Of a stretch of DNA of 64,000 nt, positions 45,440-64,000 are shown piece by piece. The notes below the pieces were generated by a model. The model saw only the letters and a program-made list of their open reading frames with translations, did no database searches and was not told where the DNA came from. Within the stretch, counting starts at the first letter, position 1; each line of letters begins with the position of its first letter. Position numbers and translations under genes: made by a program. Source of the stretch: Actinomyces mediterranea (GTDB lineage Bacteria; Actinomycetota; Actinomycetes; Actinomycetales; Actinomycetaceae); NCBI RefSeq assembly GCF_900155595.1, contig NZ_FTPB01000003.1:124001-188000 (forward strand), written 5' to 3'.

Positions 45440-46040
45440 GAGCTTATTCGGCAAGAAACAGGGGCCGAAATGGTCGGCCCGGGACCGGCGGTGCATGATG
45501 ACCCGTGCACCATCGTCGACTCCCGTGGGGTCGTGCGCCACAAGCTCGACGTCTAGGCCCCTTAACGAGTGGTGGTTGACGGATATCACCGAGCATCCCA
45601 GGGGTGAGGGCACGCTGTATGTGTGTGCCGACAGACGTCTTCTCACCAGATTCGACAAGCTCCTCGATCGACTCGAGGATGAAAGCACGGCTCGCGGTCG
45701 ACGCGCTCACCCATGCCGTCCGTATGCGCGGCGAGGTTGCTGGCTGCATCGTGGACTCGGACCGAGCAAGCCAGTTCCGGTCCACGAAGGACCCAAAAGC
45801 CCTCGCCCGCAACCGCCTAGCCGCCCCCATGAGCACGGTCGCCTCGTGTGGGGACAACGCCGCCATGGAGACTGTTCTTCAGTCTCCTACAAAAGAACGA
45901 TTCTCAACCGGCACAGATGAGCAACCCGAAACCAACTGCGCATCACAATCATCACCCGGATCGAGCACACCTACCACAGACGCCGCACGCACAACCACCT
46001 CACACACTTGACCCCCACCAAACGCGAAACCACCATAAGC
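45440..46040 (+). pseudogene. Degraded IS3-family transposase (orfB) relic 1
   Basis: Pieces of an IS3 orfB integrase are spread over three frames: RPGPAVHDDP-like start, NEWWLTDITEHPRGEGTLYV with the first catalytic Asp, then SSIDSRMKARLAVDALTHAV and GCIVDSDRASQF where the usual HSDRG reads DSDRA, then CGDNAAME, and the C-terminal IEHTYHRRRTHNHLTHLTP. Frameshifts and the altered DDE motif show it is dead. Terminal repeats were not found. Confidence 0.8.
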
Positions 46041-46156
46041 CAGACACCAACCACCACCCCACCCACCCTGCCACCAACCCCACACCAGACCCTGGAGATT
46101 CAGACCAATCTTCCACCGTTAATTACTGAGGTTGTCTGCAAGTTGTGGACAGTTTG

Positions 46157-58401: not shown

Positions 58402-58498
58402 GGGTGTGTCAGTTCTCAGGAAGGACGAGGGCGCGGGCGCGCGGCTGGGAGACGAGCTGGGCGGCGAGGGCGCGCACGTCATCGGTGGTGACGGCGTT
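58402..58498. repeat. 97-bp direct repeat, copy 2 (true M16 3' end)
   Basis: Covers the last codons and stop of the intact M16 peptidase gene. Together with copy 1 it brackets the NYN gene, giving a cassette of about 1.17 kb (one repeat plus 1072 bases). Confidence 0.95.
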
Positions 58499-59722
58499 GA
58501 CGGCGTCGAGGGACTCGGTGACGGTCTTGTAGCGCCCTGAGACTTCGGAGCGCCCCAAGCGCATCATCTTCGACCAATTGTCCTCCAAGCCGAGGGCGAC
58601 TGAGCCGCGGACTTGGCCGCGCACACGTTCGAGTTCGGCGTCGGTAGGGCCGGTGGCAGCGAGGTCTTCGAGTTCGCCGATCATGATGCGCTGGACCTCG
58701 TCGATGTTCGAGGGCGAGGTGCCCGCGTACATGCCGACGGTGCCAGTGTCGGTGTAGGCGGATTCGAAGGCGTAGGTCGTGTAAGCGAGGCCGCGCTTCT
58801 CGCGCACTTCTTGGAAGAGCCTCGATGACATGGAGCCACCGAGGACGCTGATGAGCACCGACATGGTGGGGCCCTCGTCGGCGTGGACTCGCCTGCCCTT
58901 CGTTCCGACGATGAGGTGCGCCTGTTCGACAGTGCGCCTGCGGATGACCTCGTACTCGTGCTCGGGCGTCGCCTCCGGGGTCATCGACCTGCGAGGCCTG
59001 GGCTGGGCGCTGGTCGGGGCGTCCGACCAGGCGGAGGCGCTGATCGCCTCGTCGATGAGTGCGACGAGCCTGTCGTGGTCGACGGCGCCCGAGGCTGCGA
59101 CGACGAGGGAGTCGGGCGCGTAGTGGCGGCGGTAGTGCTCCCAGACGGCGTCGCGCGTGACCGATGAGATGACGTCGGGAGTTCCTCCTATGGGTCGGCC
59201 CAGAGGTGTGTCGCCGTGGACGGCAAGTTGGAAGGCGTCGTGGACGACTTCGTTGGGACTGTCCTCCGCCATGGCGAGCTCGTCGAGGATGACGCCGCGC
59301 TCCATGGAGAAGGCGTCGGGGGTGAGCATCGAGTTGGAGAGCATGTCGACGAGGACGCCGGTCGCCATATCAAGGTCGTCGGAGAGGATCCGCGCCCAGT
59401 AGGCGGTGTGTTCGCGGGCGGTTTCCGCGTTCGAGTCCCCGCCGACCCGGTCGAAGGATTCTGCGATGTCGAGGGCGCTGCGCCGCGTCGTCCCTTTGAA
59501 GAGGAGGTGTTCGAGGAAGTGAGTGGATCCGGCGAAGTCCGCGGATTCGTCGCGCGACCCGACGGGCACCCACAGACTGAGTGCGACCGAGCGGGTTGCG
59601 GGGACCGTCTGGGTGATGATTCGACTTCCCGATGAGGTGACGGTTCGCAGGATGTCGCCTTCGGAGTCGTCAAGCAGGTGCGCCCGGGTCGCTTCAAGGG
59701 GCAATTCGATCGGCGGAGTCAT
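58409..59722 (-). CDS. M16 family zinc metallopeptidase
   Basis: 437 aa. HFLEH zinc-binding inverted motif (residues 68-72, HxxEH) and a third ligand Glu in ERGVILDELAMAEDS-like segment (~141-155). The second half has the family's DHDRLVAL and GGSMSSRLFQEVREKRGLAY (~297-316). Members of this size (half of pitrilysin) usually act as homodimers or with an inactive partner; in this phylum the gene often sits beside dapB. No signal peptide is evident. Its 3' end has been copied at 57233, which marks a cassette insertion next to it. Confidence 0.92.
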   Translation of the reverse strand: MTPPIELPLEATRAHLLDDSEGDILRTVTSSGSRIITQTVPATRSVALSLWVPVGSRDESADFAGSTHFLEHLLFKGTTRRSALDIAESFDRVGGDSNAETAREHTAYWARILSDDLDMATGVLVDMLSNSMLTPDAFSMERGVILDELAMAEDSPNEVVHDAFQLAVHGDTPLGRPIGGTPDVISSVTRDAVWEHYRRHYAPDSLVVAASGAVDHDRLVALIDEAISASAWSDAPTSAQPRPRRSMTPEATPEHEYEVIRRRTVEQAHLIVGTKGRRVHADEGPTMSVLISVLGGSMSSRLFQEVREKRGLAYTTYAFESAYTDTGTVGMYAGTSPSNIDEVQRIMIGELEDLAATGPTDAELERVRGQVRGSVALGLEDNWSKMMRLGRSEVSGRYKTVTESLDAVNAVTTDDVRALAAQLVSQPRARALVLPEN

Positions 59723-59841: not shown

Positions 59842-60093
59842 CTACTGGCCGTTTTGGAGGGCTGCGGCTTGCTCGTCCATGATCCGGCGCCGATTGCGGT
59901 CATAGTCCCCCAGACCCCGCCCCACCGTGAACAGCAGGAATGCCACCATCCAGGTATTCTCAGGAGTTTGGCTTTTCGTGATCAACGCGTACCCGAAGCT
60001 CATCACTAGGACCGCGATCGTCAGCCAGTCGCAGGCGCGACCGACCTTTCCCCACGCGCTCATGTCCTTCCATTGAGCCATTGTGCTTGTCAC
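59842..60093 (-). CDS. Small two-helix membrane protein, putative immunity protein (module A)
   Basis: 83 aa from a GTG at 60093; an ATG four codons on (60081) is an alternative. Two hydrophobic segments (~22-39 and ~46-60) flank a polar loop, and a basic/charged tail ends with NRRRIMDEQ. Seven bases downstream of the exported peptide gene, so co-transcribed. Its paralogue is at 61747. The paralogues share the pattern W-x4-W-x2-[VI]G-[RE]AC-x-WL at the N terminus and D-YD-[RQ]-x2-RR at the C terminus, but are otherwise diverged. Hypothesis: self-protection against the peptide. No known immunity family recognised. Confidence 0.7.
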   Translation of the reverse strand: MTSTMAQWKDMSAWGKVGRACDWLTIAVLVMSFGYALITKSQTPENTWMVAFLLFTVGRGLGDYDRNRRRIMDEQAAALQNGQ

Positions 60094-60099
60094 TTCCTC

Positions 60100-60510
60100 T
60101 CACCTGTAGTAGCAGTACGAGTGATTGGGGCATTCTTTCTGGAACCCGTGACTCCATCCATGGTATCCGGCGATTCCCACCGGACCGAGTCCATAAGCAG
60201 CTCCCATCAGACCCCATCCCCAGTCGCCGCTCCACATACTCCATGTCACTTGGCCTGTGGCAGCACGGGCAACACCATCATTGTAAGCCACGGTGTAACC
60301 TGCCATCAGAACGGCAACAATAGCCGCTATAGGAATCGCTCTCGTCTGTTCAGATTCTCTTTCAAATGTCGTACTCTCGACCGTGACAGACACGCTATCA
60401 CGGTCTTGCATTGTGACAGTATCAGTGGAGCCGTACGCGACTCCAGCGCCACTGAGTACGAGCGCACACGAAGTCAGTGCACTGATCACAGTCCTCTTCA
60501 ACGTCGTCAT
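60100..60510 (-). CDS. Exported Cys-containing peptide, putative bacteriocin-like toxin (module A)
   Basis: 136 aa from the ATG at 60510, preceded by AAAGGAG. Sec signal peptide with basic start MTTLKRTV and hydrophobic core, predicted cleavage after VAYG (~27). Residues ~28-54 are a polar pro-region. A hydrophobic stretch (~58-72) follows, then YNDGVARAATGQVTWSMW (~76-93) and the Gly/Trp/Tyr-rich end GLGPVGIAGYHGWSHGF with Cys127 and Cys133, ending YCYYR. Residues 1-54 are identical to module B. Secreted, small and paired with a small membrane protein, as in bacteriocin/immunity systems; SdpC-type toxins are an analogy only. No export or processing genes are nearby. Confidence 0.7.
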   Translation of the reverse strand: MTTLKRTVISALTSCALVLSGAGVAYGSTDTVTMQDRDSVSVTVESTTFERESEQTRAIPIAAIVAVLMAGYTVAYNDGVARAATGQVTWSMWSGDWGWGLMGAAYGLGPVGIAGYHGWSHGFQKECPNHSYCYYR

Positions 60511-60737
60511 TGTTGTCTCCTTTGAGACAAAGCTGCTTGAGTGATTGTCGGCGGACGCCGTCATTTTATGATTTGCGACTCGTCCTCTTCTATCGAGGAA
60601 TGTTAATGATTGTTGGGATGGTGCCTGTCTCGGCGTTCATCGCCAGATAGCATCCGACCGAAGACGCACGGCATACCCCGCTTCCACGACACGTGGTGCA
60701 GCACGGACATGTGAAACACGTTGAGTACGAGAATCTG
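60349..60737. repeat. 389-bp direct repeat, copy A
   Basis: Nearly identical to 62274-62662 (same length, about ten mismatches). It covers the first 54 codons of the peptide gene plus 227 bases upstream, so the two modules share leader, signal peptide and promoter. Confidence 0.95.
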
Positions 60738-60975
60738 CGTCTATGCAGGTGAGGGTAGGGGTCGTGGAGCGGGTCTGGGTGGTGCTTGCTGTCTAGTTCA
60801 TGGTGGTTTTCCATTCGATGGGGGGTCAGGCGGTCGAGGTGGTCGTGTCTGCGGTGCCTGTGGTAGGTGCGTTCGATCCAGGTGACGATCGCGATGCGTA
60901 GTTGGTCGTACTCGCTCAAGATCTGCGCCGCCAGGGCATGAGCCTCGCTCGCATCGGGCGGATCCTTAACTGCTC
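60700..60975 (-). pseudogene. IS3-family transposase C-terminal relic 4
   Basis: On the minus strand ILSEYDQLRIAIVTWIERTYHRH and RRHDHLDRLTPHR is the C-terminal end of an IS3 integrase, similar to relics at 45.9 and 47.5 kb. It then runs into the 389-bp repeat. Suggests a transposon was involved in moving or duplicating the peptide modules. Confidence 0.6.
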
Positions 60976-61019
60976 AACCTCAACAATCAGACGCGCTGTG
61001 GGTTGCTAACACCATAGAT

Positions 61020-61030
61020 TGGTAGTACCA
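61020..61030. promoter_or_regulatory. Palindrome upstream of the toxin-antitoxin pair
   Basis: TGGTA-G-TACCA is a perfect inverted repeat 7 bases before the GTG at 61038. RHH antitoxins usually bind such short repeats to repress their operon. Confidence 0.45.
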
Positions 61031-61037
61031 TTCTCGT

Positions 61038-61325
61038 GTGGCCATTAGATTCACTAAGAGTGCCGGACGCCACGGGGTATCTCAACAAGAAGCCCTGCAC
61101 GCTGTTTTCCATCACGTTAACGCTGCTTCGATTGAAGGAGAGCCGGGAGATAAGACCATGGTCTTCGTCGGATTGCCGCACCCTCAAGCACGGCGGTTCA
61201 TCGAGGTGATTGCTTCGATCAGGGGGAGCGCAGATATCAAGATCTTTCACGCAATGGAGGTCACCGACGCGTGGAAGCATCTGGTCTACGAAGCCGGGCA
61301 CACAGAATGGGAGAACGAATCGTGA
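61038..61325 (+). CDS. BrnT-like toxin of a type II toxin-antitoxin pair
   Basis: 95 aa from a GTG at 61038. BrnT-like RNase fold hints: ARF/KHG-type segment KSAGRHGVSQQEALHAVFHH (~7-26), then a hydrophobic strand MVFVGLPHPQARRFIEVIAS (~41-60) and IKIFHAMEV (~67-75), as in toxins of this group. Toxin gene first and antitoxin second, as in BrnTA. Overlaps the antitoxin gene as GTGA. Confidence in the family is moderate because pairwise similarity is low. Confidence 0.65.
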   Translation: MAIRFTKSAGRHGVSQQEALHAVFHHVNAASIEGEPGDKTMVFVGLPHPQARRFIEVIASIRGSADIKIFHAMEVTDAWKHLVYEAGHTEWENES

Positions 61326-61660
61326 CTCACACACTGACTGAGGAAGAAGAAGCCCGCTACAGCGCCCTCGCAGACACAGCGGAAAGGGGCGAACTCAAGC
61401 AACTCGGACCCGCACTCGGGTCGAGGACGCTCGCCAACGCGGACGATCTTGCGTCGTTCATGGTGACTCATGGCGTGACCACTGGGGGCCGACCTAATCT
61501 CGGGAGAGCGCGCGCTACGGGTCATGGGCGGTCGCCGCGGCGCCAGGTACGGCTGCCTGAGGATCTGAACAATCGCTTGGATGCATATGCTGACGCCAAA
61601 GACCTCACAGTCTCCGATGTCATCCGCGCCGCCCTCGAAGCGTATCTTCAACCCGCCTAA
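61322..61660 (+). CDS. Ribbon-helix-helix antitoxin
   Basis: 112 aa from a GTG at 61322, which overlaps the toxin stop by 4 bases. The acidic N-terminal region (~1-60) is probably the toxin-binding part. The C-terminal RHH/CopG motif is RRQVRLPEDLNNRLDAYADAKDLTVSDVIRAALEAYL (about residues 73-108, given in parts: RQVRLPEDLNNRLD then SDVIRAALEAY). It should neutralise the toxin and bind the upstream palindrome. Lies between the two peptide modules on the opposite strand. Confidence 0.8.
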   Translation: MTHTLTEEEEARYSALADTAERGELKQLGPALGSRTLANADDLASFMVTHGVTTGGRPNLGRARATGHGRSPRRQVRLPEDLNNRLDAYADAKDLTVSDVIRAALEAYLQPA

Positions 61661-61746
61661 CCGCCGGTATTGATCACTGCCAGGAGGCATCCTTGGATTG
61701 CCAGCAGACTGTGCACATCAGATGTAGCCGCGGCATTGAACGATGG

Positions 61747-62001
61747 CTATTGACCAATATCGATGCCAGGTCTTTGCGCTGGGCAAGACGCTGACTCGTT
61801 CCGCCGACGAATACGTTGATCATATTCCTTGAATCCGGCACCTAACAGCATCAGGAATATCGCCATCCACCACATGAATTCAGAAACCTGAATCCCCCGA
61901 ATCATCGAATACGCCAAGTTAACGCCCAGCCCCACGGCTGCGAGCCAGTAGCACGCCTCACCGATGAGAGCCCACACACCCATGTTGTTCCACCGAGACA
62001 T
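61747..62001 (-). CDS. Small two-helix membrane protein, putative immunity protein (module B)
   Basis: 84 aa from the ATG at 62001, preceded by GAGGGGG. Two hydrophobic segments (~20-36 and ~43-58), then a charged tail with EYDQRIRRRNE. Eleven bases downstream of peptide gene B. Paralogue of 59842-60093 with shared N- and C-terminal residues. Hypothetical immunity partner of peptide B. The codons between segments diverge from module A, as would be needed for specific recognition. Confidence 0.7.
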   Translation of the reverse strand: MSRWNNMGVWALIGEACYWLAAVGLGVNLAYSMIRGIQVSEFMWWMAIFLMLLGAGFKEYDQRIRRRNESASCPAQRPGIDIGQ

Positions 62002-62012
62002 CACCCGCCCCC

Positions 62013-62435
62013 TCACCTGTAGTAGCAGTACGAGTGCTTTGGACACTCCGTCTTAAAGCCGTGGCTCCATCCTTGGTACCCCGCCCAGCCAACGGGACCA
62101 AGTCCATTTGCGTACGCAAGTAAAGCCCATCCCCACTGTCCCTCCCACATGCTCCATGTCACTTGGCCTGTGGCAGCACGGGCAACGCCATCGTTGTACG
62201 CCCACTTGTAACCACCCGCCAGGACAGCAAAGACGACAGTGACGGCTACGCCTACTCTTCTCGGCGACTCGGGTTCAGATTCTCTTTCAAATGTCGTACT
62301 CTCGACCGTGACAGACACGCTATCACGGTCTTGCATTGTGACAGTATCAGTGGAGCCGTACGCGACTCCAGCGCCACTGAGTACGAGCGCACACGAAGTC
62401 AGTGCACTGATCACAGTCCTCTTCAACGTCGTCAT
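62013..62435 (-). CDS. Exported Cys-containing peptide, putative bacteriocin-like toxin (module B)
   Basis: 140 aa from the ATG at 62435, preceded by AAAGGAG. The first 54 residues, covering signal peptide and pro-region, are identical to module A. Then it diverges (PESPRRVGVAVTVVFAVLAGG) and converges again at AYNDGVARAATGQVTWSMW, then WGWALLAYANGLGPVGWAG, YQGWSHGF and ECPKHSYCYYR with Cys131 and Cys137. The pattern is constant leader, variable hydrophobic core, and constant Cys-bearing tail. Co-transcribed with the membrane protein at 61747. Confidence 0.7.
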   Translation of the reverse strand: MTTLKRTVISALTSCALVLSGAGVAYGSTDTVTMQDRDSVSVTVESTTFERESEPESPRRVGVAVTVVFAVLAGGYKWAYNDGVARAATGQVTWSMWEGQWGWALLAYANGLGPVGWAGYQGWSHGFKTECPKHSYCYYR

Positions 62436-62662
62436 TGTTGTCTCCTTTGAGACAAAGCTGCTTGAGTGATTGTTGGCCGACGTTGTCATTTTATGATTTG
62501 CGACTCGTCCTCTTCTATCGAGGAATGTTAATGATTGTTGGGATGGTGCCTGTCTCGGCGTTCATCGCCAGATAGCATCCGACCGAAGACGCACGGCATA
62601 CCCCGCTTCCACGACACGTGGTACGGCACAGACGCGTGAAACACGTTGAGTACGAGAATCTG
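62274..62662. repeat. 389-bp direct repeat, copy B
   Basis: Partner of 60349-60737, in the same orientation 1925 bp apart. Together they frame a potential recombination event that would delete or amplify a module plus the toxin-antitoxin genes between them. Confidence 0.95.
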
Positions 62663-63090: not shown

Positions 63091-63789
63091 TCAACAACCC
63101 GGAGTCGACCCGATCCGAGCGGCGCGAACGGCGAGTTCGGTCCGTGAGGTGCAGCCGAAGCAGTCGAGCAGTTGTGTGACATAGGTACGCACCGTCCCCT
63201 CCGAGTAGCCAACCTGCTCTGCGATCTCCCGATTCGTCACGCCTTGTATCAGGCACTCGTAAACAGCCCTCTGGCCTGTCGACAGTGAGTCGACGATCCG
63301 TTCCCACCGTTCAACCGCCTCGTGCCGTTCTCCGAAGGATCTCAACACATTGACGGCGGCATCCATCACTCGCGGCGAGAAGACATGCCTCCCTGAGACG
63401 ACGCGCACGAGGGAGTCCACGATTTCATCGATCGGCAGATCCTTCGTAAGGAAGGAGCAGGCTCCCGCAGCCATTGCCTCGGCGAGGCGATGCTGGACCT
63501 CGAAGGCCGTGAGCATCACGACTCTCACCGATGAGTGCTGCTCAGACATGATCCGAGTAGTCTCCACTCCGTCAAGCACGGGCATCTCAACATCCATCAG
63601 AACGATGTCGGCAGGGCGGTGTTTCACAAGCGCGAGGACCTCGCGCCCATCAGCAGCGGTCCCGACAATGCTGATGCGAGGATCCAGACCCAGAAGGGAG
63701 GCGAGGCCGTCGCGCAGATCAGGATCGTCATCCGCCAAGATCACCCGGATGGGGCGGATATGATCGTACGGCGACATGGGGTCGATCAT
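63091..63789 (-). CDS. NarL/FixJ-type two-component response regulator
   Basis: 232 aa from the ATG at 63789, which overlaps the kinase stop as ATGA and follows GAGGAAA. Receiver domain (~12-130): acidic pair in LADDDPDL, phosphorylated Asp in VLMDVEMPVLDG, Thr/Lys in LTAFE and LTKDLP. A C-terminal LuxR-type HTH (~165-225) has GVTNREIAEQVGYSEGTVRTYVTQLL. Pairs with the kinase just upstream. Regulated genes are unknown; it lies downstream of peptide module B, with a divergent gap. Confidence 0.93.
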   Translation of the reverse strand: MIDPMSPYDHIRPIRVILADDDPDLRDGLASLLGLDPRISIVGTAADGREVLALVKHRPADIVLMDVEMPVLDGVETTRIMSEQHSSVRVVMLTAFEVQHRLAEAMAAGACSFLTKDLPIDEIVDSLVRVVSGRHVFSPRVMDAAVNVLRSFGERHEAVERWERIVDSLSTGQRAVYECLIQGVTNREIAEQVGYSEGTVRTYVTQLLDCFGCTSRTELAVRAARIGSTPGC

Positions 63790-64000
63790 TCCATTTCCTC
63801 ATTTCGGGCAGTATCAATCGGCATGACGAGAGATATCATCCAGCGCCGGAGCACCGCGCCGAAATAAACATCGCCGCCGAGCGCCTGTGCCCGGCTCTGC
63901 AGACTGACGATTCCCAGTCCGGACGACAATTCGAGTTGAAGATCCGGTTCTCCCTTCGAAAGATCCGATACGACGGTGACTTCCACGCCGAGATCCGACA
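63786..64000 (-). CDS. Sensor histidine kinase, 3' part only (cut by window edge)
   Basis: Only the last ~71 codons are seen, ending in a stop at 63786. The segment SSGLGIVSLQSRAQALGGDVYFG is the G2 box end of a HATPase_c domain (GLGL-type), followed by the C-terminal strand. NarL-type kinases have this layout. Overlaps the response regulator start by 4 bases, so the two are one operon. Confidence 0.85.
   Translation of the reverse strand, partial: SDLGVEVTVVSDLSKGEPDLQLELSSGLGIVSLQSRAQALGGDVYFGAVLRRWMISLVMPIDTARNEEME

What the first reader, a model, noticed from the sequence alone, without database searches (positions are those of the whole stretch)
59842..62435. Two tandem exported-peptide plus two-helix membrane-protein modules: putative new bacteriocin/immunity family
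Each module has a Sec-exported 136/140-aa protein with Gly/Trp/Tyr-rich C terminus and two cysteines (spaced 6 apart), followed within 6-12 bases by an 83/84-aa two-helix membrane protein. I recognise neither family. Constant leader, variable hydrophobic core and constant Cys tail, plus diverged membrane partners, suggest specificity variants of toxin and immunity. Known: class II bacteriocins and SdpC-type toxins pair with small membrane immunity proteins. Inference: the function here.
Basis: partly seen in the sequence, partly recalled or inferred. Interest (0 to 1): 0.85.

Follow-up and report, generated by a model that had tools for sequence, protein, structure and literature searches.

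The report
Pheromone-wired bacteriocin-like gene pairs
Two copies of an unrecognised pair of genes (a secreted peptide and a small membrane protein) look like a bacterial weapon with its antidote, and they share a DNA switch with a neighbouring, equally unrecognised peptide-signalling system.

Summary
Two exported-peptide/membrane-protein gene pairs lie on the minus strand at 62435-61747 and 60510-59842. Neither protein reaches a family cut-off in Pfam or NCBIfam, and PHROGs and PADLOC list nothing. The peptide occurs in 7 of 35 genomes searched of the genus (Schaalia), with no convincing hit outside it. All 8 copies are followed, 6-41 bases on, by a hydrophobic ORF. One relative keeps a lone partner at the same chromosomal site. 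Promoter and leader of the window copies are near-identical, while core and partner diverge together.

The new part is upstream: a NarL-type response regulator, a histidine kinase and, just outside the window, a small exported peptide ending C-x3-P-x4-C. A shared site (ACATTCCTCGATAG) precedes both peptide genes and the small-peptide gene, about 34 bases before a -10-like hexamer. Two near relatives carry the same regulatory trio here, followed by unrelated exported-peptide/membrane-protein genes. The C-x3-P-x4-C peptide precedes 15 of 30 related kinase genes in Actinomycetaceae, against 1 of 6000 random stretches.

Best reading: a pheromone-controlled, exchangeable bacteriocin/immunity locus with new peptide, partner and signal families. 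Killing, immunity and signalling are inferred, not shown.

The parts
62013..62435 (-). peptide A, 140 aa: signal + propeptide (1-54), hydrophobic segment, Gly/Trp/Tyr-rich core, C-x5-C tail
   Evidence: translation; family alignment; no match at cut-off
61747..62001 (-). partner A, 84 aa small membrane protein (putative immunity), 11 bases after peptide A
   Evidence: hydropathy; profile
60100..60510 (-). peptide B, 136 aa, same family; core close to that of G009
   Evidence: alignment; dS 0.15 in core against G009
59842..60093 (-). partner B, 83 aa from GTG (79 aa from the ATG), 6 bases after peptide B
   Evidence: profile; hydropathy
62515..62528 (-). shared regulatory site ACATTCCTCGATAG upstream of peptide A
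60590..60603 (-). shared regulatory site ACATTCCTCGATAG upstream of peptide B
62488..62493 (-). -10-like TAAAAT, 34 bases from the C of CATTC; would place the transcript start after the alternative 158-aa start, favouring the 140-aa start
   Evidence: read by eye; inference
60563..60568 (-). -10-like TAAAAT upstream of peptide B, same spacing
   Evidence: read by eye; inference
63091..63789 (-). NarL-type response regulator (Response_reg + GerE)
   Evidence: Pfam (as L054:92-790)
63786..64000 (-). C-terminal part of the histidine kinase (match reaches G000:C1:188850, outside the window; five hydrophobic segments); the exported C-x3-P-x4-C peptide matches at G000:C1:188940-189098
61038..61660 (+). 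two-ORF unit between the modules: unknown 95-aa ORF and RHH-domain ORF (toxin-antitoxin-like); may have come in with module A
   Evidence: origin is inference
60777..60906 (-). stretch repeated at window 45931-46059 (78%); transposase-like by eye, no Pfam match
58409..59722 (-). M16 peptidase, conserved chromosomal neighbour (pnp-M16 site), not taken as part of the system

Best explanation
A cell-density-regulated bacteriocin/immunity locus. A small Sec-exported peptide with a C-terminal C-x3-P-x4-C ring, encoded just outside the window, acts as pheromone. The polytopic HisKA_3-type kinase senses it and phosphorylates the NarL-type regulator. The regulator binds an ACATTC(C/G)TCGAT site (part of a dyad in G007), about 34 bases upstream of the -10, and switches on its own pheromone gene and both peptide genes. 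Each 136/140-aa product is exported by Sec, loses its signal (and perhaps the 54-residue leader), closes one disulfide, and its hydrophobic Gly/Trp-rich core inserts into membranes of competitors. The membrane protein encoded 6-11 bases downstream protects the producer. New core+partner cassettes enter by recombination in the constant promoter-leader. Shown by sequence: gene anatomy, linkage, shared sites, mosaic structure, purifying selection, distribution. Inferred: export, pheromone action, DNA binding, killing, immunity and the route of cassette entry.
For: Peptide family in 7 of 35 genus genomes. Hydrophobic ORF directly downstream of 8 of 8 copies. A partner profile built from 4 sequences finds, as its three best new hits among 35 genomes, the ORFs beside the peptide in G030 (1.4e-5), G003 (5.1e-5) and G028 (7.8e-4). 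Lone partner in G008 upstream of M16; no peptide match in that genome even at E 10. A and B share promoter+leader (identity 0.95-1.0 from about -160 to +157) while cores have dS 1.23 and partners 1.64; B core and partner are close to G009 (dS 0.15 and 0.22), and A's upstream DNA matches G009's. Regulatory site: 17 exact 12-mer sites in 35 genomes, reversed control 0; at this locus lie 3 of 5 in G000 (the other two inside called genes), 2 of 2 in G009, 2 of 2 in G007. G013 and G007 carry the same small peptide-HK-RR trio at this site, followed by unrelated exported glycine-rich proteins and membrane ORFs. C-x3-P-x4-C peptide before 15 of 30 HK loci (29 with at least 700 bases upstream; recheck); 0 of 30 on the opposite strand, 1 of 6000 random stretches.
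Against: No activity data and no detectable relation to any known bacteriocin. No transporter, and no protease other than the conserved M16 one, is apparent by eye among the genes called next to the modules. Core charge is only +3.1 (A), +1.0 (B) and down to -1.0 (G023). The G003 copy lacks a leader. The G032 and G023 partners were not found by the partner profile, and the G023 partner is larger (148 aa, three hydrophobic segments). G030, G032, G028, G003 and G023 have no match to the kinase at E <= 1e-15, so the regulatory link holds for 2 of 7 genomes. The G013 exported gene lacks the site, the G013 small-peptide site departs from the 12-mer, and the truncated G007 gene has none. Not every off-locus site is inside a gene: the G001 one lies about 0.2 kb before an rpsO-like ORF. 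AlphaFold models are too poor to use.
Confidence: 0.62

Rival explanations
1. The 136/140-aa proteins are themselves signals or surface peptides (pheromone, adhesin or matrix component), and the membrane protein is a docking or export partner, not an immunity protein.
For: Sec-type leader, disulfide-capable tail and a conserved aromatic C terminus; site shared with a signalling system; no killing shown.
Against: Patchy presence (7 of 35), cassette exchange with a constant leader, an orphan partner, and unrelated exported-protein/membrane pairs behind the same regulator fit conflict genes better.
Confidence: 0.17
2. An intracellular or self-acting membrane toxin-antitoxin or stress-lysis pair (SdpC-like cannibalism or holin-like), used on siblings rather than on competitors.
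For: Small hydrophobic pair; density-type regulation would suit self-lysis; RHH ORF nearby.
Against: Apparent Sec leader; no sdpAB-like genes recognised by eye among the called neighbours (not searched by homology); no phage, plasmid or viral-contig match; two different alleles kept side by side.
Confidence: 0.13
3. The shared site and the linkage are coincidental: the NarL system regulates something else and the modules only happen to be inserted beside it.
For: In 5 of 7 genomes the module lies elsewhere and the kinase has no match at E <= 1e-15; many kinase cassettes in other genomes show no such module beside them (by eye).
Against: Exact 14-mer before pheromone and peptide genes in two species, and a 15-base match before pheromone and an unrelated exported gene in a third; constant spacing to a -10-like hexamer in the G000 and G009 genes (by eye).
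Confidence: 0.12

Closest known systems
ComX-ComP-ComA (comQXPA) quorum sensing of Bacillus
   Same: Peptide gene followed by a polytopic HisKA_3-type kinase and a NarL/LuxR-type regulator; the G007 small-peptide site is a dyad of 8-4-8 geometry, like the ComA box (6-4-6, recalled).
   Different: Peptide is apparently Sec-exported with a two-Cys ring; no comQ-like gene recognised by eye among the called neighbours. PMC8895600 (passages read) reports the full ComQXPA pathway in Bacillus relatives and clostridia, with the HK-RR pair in chloroflexi.
Pheromone-regulated class II bacteriocin loci (pln, blp, sak type; recalled)
   Same: Inducing peptide, kinase and regulator drive bacteriocin-immunity pairs through a shared promoter element; cassette variety and orphan immunity genes.
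   Different: Those use double-glycine leaders with ABC exporters and LytTR regulators (recalled); here a Sec-type leader, no exporter recognised nearby, NarL regulator; no match at family cut-offs.
SdpC/SdpI toxin-immunity of Bacillus subtilis (recalled)
   Same: Sec-exported precursor giving a disulfide-containing hydrophobic peptide, with a membrane immunity protein.
   Different: No Pfam/NCBIfam match; no SdpA/SdpB relatives recognised nearby by eye; partner only 67-87 aa in 7 of 8 copies.
Actifensin (afn) of Actinomyces ruminicola, PMC6989792 (passages read)
   Same: Leadered Cys-containing bacteriocin of the same family Actinomycetaceae; multiple structural genes within one operon; a LuxR-family gene in the cluster.
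   Different: Six cysteines and a defensin-like structure, 37-aa mature peptide, ABC transporter and protease genes in the cluster; different Cys pattern and gene order (sequences not aligned here).

Membership tests
class II bacteriocin with immunity protein (broad sense) | small gene-encoded precursor with an N-terminal export leader | tested here: met
   signal peptide judged by eye only; the G003 copy lacks it
class II bacteriocin with immunity protein (broad sense) | adjacent small membrane-protein gene co-inherited with the peptide | tested here: met
   8 of 8 copies; co-divergence
class II bacteriocin with immunity protein (broad sense) | cationic, membrane-active mature peptide under 10 kDa | tested here: inconclusive
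   core 80-87 aa, charge +3.1 to -1.0; mature ends unknown
class II bacteriocin with immunity protein (broad sense) | kills relatives; partner protects | not testable with these tools
   needs bench work
pediocin-like (class IIa) | YGNG-V/L box with N-terminal Cys pair (recalled) | tested here: not met
   absent from sequences; no Pfam match
SdpC | sequence match to a described family model | tested here: not met
   no match in Pfam/NCBIfam; whether those libraries hold an SdpC model was not checked
comQXPA | HisKA_3 kinase + NarL/LuxR regulator directly after a small peptide gene | tested here: met
   the kinase's HisKA_3 score is just below Pfam's cut-off (22.8 vs 24)
comQXPA | ComQ isoprenyl transferase before the peptide gene | tested here: not met
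   the next called gene upstream of the small peptide is polynucleotide phosphorylase
agr | AgrB-type processing protein and LytTR regulator | tested here: not met
   regulator is Response_reg+GerE; no gene called between pnp and the small peptide

The most novel reading that the evidence does not exclude
Actinomycetaceae possess an undescribed class of peptide pheromone: Sec-exported, cyclised by a disulfide across C-x3-P-x4-C, sensed by a dedicated HisKA_3/NarL pair. In one lineage it commands interchangeable bacteriocin/immunity cassettes of at least three unrelated families that plug in behind a constant regulatory trio (and, within the family studied here, behind a constant promoter-leader), so that toxin specificity is swapped without rewiring.
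Probability: 0.45. Interest if true: 0.85.

Novelty: new variant of a known kind. Interest (0 to 1): 0.72.

Why it matters
The searches made here turned up defensin-like bacteriocins of Actinomyces but, in the listings seen, no bacteriocin of Schaalia and no peptide pheromone of Actinomycetaceae. If right, this gives a testable signal peptide, receptor, regulator site and toxin/immunity pairs in human-associated bacteria (habitat recalled). It also shows how toxin specificity can be exchanged by recombination in a constant leader while staying under the same quorum switch.

Tried and rejected
Known-family labels: Pfam and NCBIfam gave only sub-cut-off hits for the four window proteins (for example Imm5 0.018, SitI6 0.016, EfeU 0.0082), PHROGs and PADLOC none. 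A PDB sequence search with P0001 gave one weak S-layer hit (0.0057), judged chance. Phage, plasmid and viral collections: nothing, so a phage-borne origin is not supported. Lipoprotein reading (L-T-S-C ending at residue 15): rejected by eye, since the Cys is not conserved in the family. AlphaFold of the precursor (pLDDT 43, 3 sequences) and of the core (pLDDT 55, 3 sequences) were all-helical but too poor for a fold search, which was therefore not run. Weak phylum hits (3 of 396, E 0.0014-0.0095) and order hits (3 of 396, E 3.7e-4 to 5.1e-4) are partial matches, all but one in frames of 306-721 aa, judged chance. M16 peptidase as dedicated processing enzyme: rejected, it is present in 34 of 35 genus genomes. 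The kinase first looked truncated in the window genome; that was a gene-caller start artefact, since the frame aligns over query residues 2-347 and has five hydrophobic segments. In some searches two of 30 kinase loci that end at a contig edge (L127, L122) were read at a wrong offset; one search repeats the test with right offsets: still 15 of 30, L127 having only 171 bases upstream. The opposite-strand control (0 of 30) was not repeated for those two.
Full report
What is there. The window is G000:C1:124001-188000. On the minus strand, in transcription order, lie the end of a histidine kinase gene (63786-64000, continuing outside), a NarL-type response regulator (63789-63091), peptide A (62435-62013) with partner A (62001-61747), about 1.2 kb of other DNA, peptide B (60510-60100) with partner B (60093-59842), and an M16 peptidase (59722-58409). 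The 1.2 kb holds two + strand ORFs, the second with a ribbon-helix-helix domain, and a stretch repeated elsewhere in the genome. I took that stretch by eye for a transposase remnant, but Pfam does not confirm it.

The peptide family. Relatives occur in 7 of 98 genomes searched as relatives (own genome included), 7 of 213 family genomes and 7 of 35 genus genomes, all in the same genus. Samples of 396 phylum and 396 order genomes added only weak partial hits outside the genus. Plasmids, phages and viral contigs gave none. Eight aligned copies share 18 invariant columns; leaving aside Met1, all lie in the last 58 residues, including T-W-S-x-W, G-x3-G-F and E-C-x2-H-x2-C. The leaders vary between species; the C-terminal core is what is conserved.

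The partner. All 8 copies are followed on the same strand by a hydrophobic ORF after 11 (A), 6 (B), 18, 7, 9, 7, 10 and 41 bases (for G003 counted from the M; the G023 start is my choice of ATG). Seven of the eight are 67-87 aa; the G023 one is 148 aa. A profile of four partners (two of the window, G009, G008) ranks the ORFs beside the peptide in G030, G003 and G028 as its best new hits in 35 genomes. Those beside the G032 and G023 peptides were missed. G008 has a lone partner homologue just upstream of M16 and next to a pilin gene, with no peptide match in that genome, as expected of an orphan immunity gene.

Mosaic structure. A and B are 95-100% identical from about -160 to +157 relative to the start codon and 88-93% identical back to about -240, falling to 40-72% just beyond and to 47% in the first 40-column block after +157. 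The 54 leader codons have no difference, while the cores have dS 1.23 and dN 0.21, and the partners dS 1.64 and dN 0.49. B core and partner are close to G009 (dS 0.15 and 0.22), whereas A's upstream DNA matches G009's (93-100% from -420 to about -20). For comparison the regulator-to-pnp side is 82% identical between the two genomes over 4.9 kb, and an alignment that spans M16 and module B is 83%. This is what a single-crossover integration of foreign core A + partner A at the promoter-leader would leave (inference). The three core and three partner comparisons give dN/dS of 0.16-0.40.

The regulatory trio. In 17 of the 30 genus M16 loci, pnp lies within 1.5 kb upstream of M16 (four further M16 matches had no locus and were not examined). 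In G000 and G009 the two are separated by a 54/55-aa ORF with signal-like N terminus and two Cys, a kinase, a regulator and the module(s). In G013 and G007 the same trio is there, but what follows is different. G013 has a 220-aa exported glycine-rich protein (L091:8104-8766) and a membrane protein with four hydrophobic segments. G007 has a truncated copy of the former, the same membrane protein, a second, unrelated exported protein (L093:8691-9194, two Cys bracketing a glycine-rich core) and a possible 38-aa one-helix ORF after it. The two exported proteins reached no family cut-off in Pfam or NCBIfam and had no PHROGs or PADLOC match; the G013 membrane protein has one sub-cut-off Pfam hit (TMEM260-like, 1.3e-4). 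The 38-aa ORF was not scanned.

A family of Cys-ring peptides. The kinase of G013 has 35 matches at E <= 1e-15 in 25 of 213 family genomes. I examined the 30 for which loci were returned; five were not examined. An ORF ending C-x3-P-x4-C lies within about 0.7 kb upstream, on the same strand, in 15 of 30 (29 of the 30 have at least 700 bases upstream). Likely variants outside the strict rule are in G033 (C-x8-C without that Pro), G231 (longer tail) and G121 (CVLFPGCC). Controls: 0 of 30 on the opposite strand and 1 of 6000 random stretches of equal length. A second kinase query in 396 order genomes hit 6, all in the window's own family. In the six further loci then read no C-x3-P-x4-C ORF was seen; one (G153) has a C-x8-C ORF without the Pro. 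So the peptide is not universal for this kinase group.

The shared site. ACATTCCTCGATAG precedes both window peptide genes and the small-peptide gene of G000, and the peptide and small-peptide genes of G009. G007 has TCGACATTCGTCGAT before its small peptide and before its unrelated exported gene; the former lies in a perfect dyad CCATCGAC-ATTC-GTCGATGG. The 12-mer ACATTCSTCGAT occurs 17 times in 35 genomes (reversed control 0). Seven of the 17 are at this locus: 3 of 5 in G000, 2 of 2 in G009, 2 of 2 in G007. The two remaining G000 sites are inside called genes; eight other genomes have one each, not all inside genes. In the window alone, with one mismatch allowed, 4 sites were seen against 0.87 expected; 1 of 100 shuffles reached 4. 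In G000 and G009 a -10-like hexamer starts 34 bases from the C of CATTC before both gene types (read by eye). Against: the G013 exported gene has no such site, its small-peptide site departs from the 12-mer, and the truncated G007 gene has none.

Interpretation. The set (Sec-type leader, hydrophobic Gly/Trp core with a disulfide-capable tail, constant membrane partner, orphan partner, allelic exchange, a site shared with a pheromone-like trio, replacement by unrelated exported-protein/membrane pairs) is what is expected of a quorum-controlled bacteriocin/immunity locus. Nothing here shows killing, protection or signalling. The link to the trio exists in 2 of the 7 genomes with the peptide family; in the other five the module sits in other contexts, for example after an RsgA GTPase gene in G028 and, by likeness, G023.

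Literature. Searches in an open-access library showed, in the listings, no description of the module or of the C-x3-P-x4-C peptides; searches returned no paper, and one search listed 15 of 27 and 6 of 30. Of papers I read passages only: PMC8895600 and PMC6989792; all others were seen as listings. Subscription journals are largely absent, so absence from print is not established.

On rereading, the identity tract, the flank comparison, two start codons and the offsets of two kinase loci were corrected.

Noticed in passing
L054:1938-2102 (-), L060:11513-11719 (-, frame), L091:5856-6017, L093:5261-5425, L194-L196, L198, L201, L202 and others: Family of small exported peptides ending C-x3-P-x4-C directly upstream of a HisKA_3/NarL-type two-component pair in Actinomycetaceae (15 of 30 kinase loci); candidate new pheromone class.
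   Followed up: partly
L091:8104-9171; L093:8691-9310: Unrelated exported glycine-rich proteins with membrane-protein neighbours behind the same regulatory trio in two near relatives; no family at cut-off.
   Followed up: partly
L092:9297-9560: Lone partner homologue upstream of M16 in G008, just after a pilin gene.
   Followed up: yes
window 61038-61660: 95-aa ORF plus RHH protein on the + strand between the modules, toxin-antitoxin-like but without a family match for the first ORF.
   Followed up: partly
L191:4743-4997, L192:3546-4133, L193:3556-4143 (coordinates of the kinase-oriented strand): In G002 and G001 the related kinase-regulator pair is followed by charged ORFs ending in -YGYK, and no Cys peptide of the strict type was seen upstream; another signal type may be served.
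   Followed up: no
L096:230-3214: In G014 the pnp-M16 gap holds a tandem duplication of two small genes with hydrophobic N termini.
   Followed up: no
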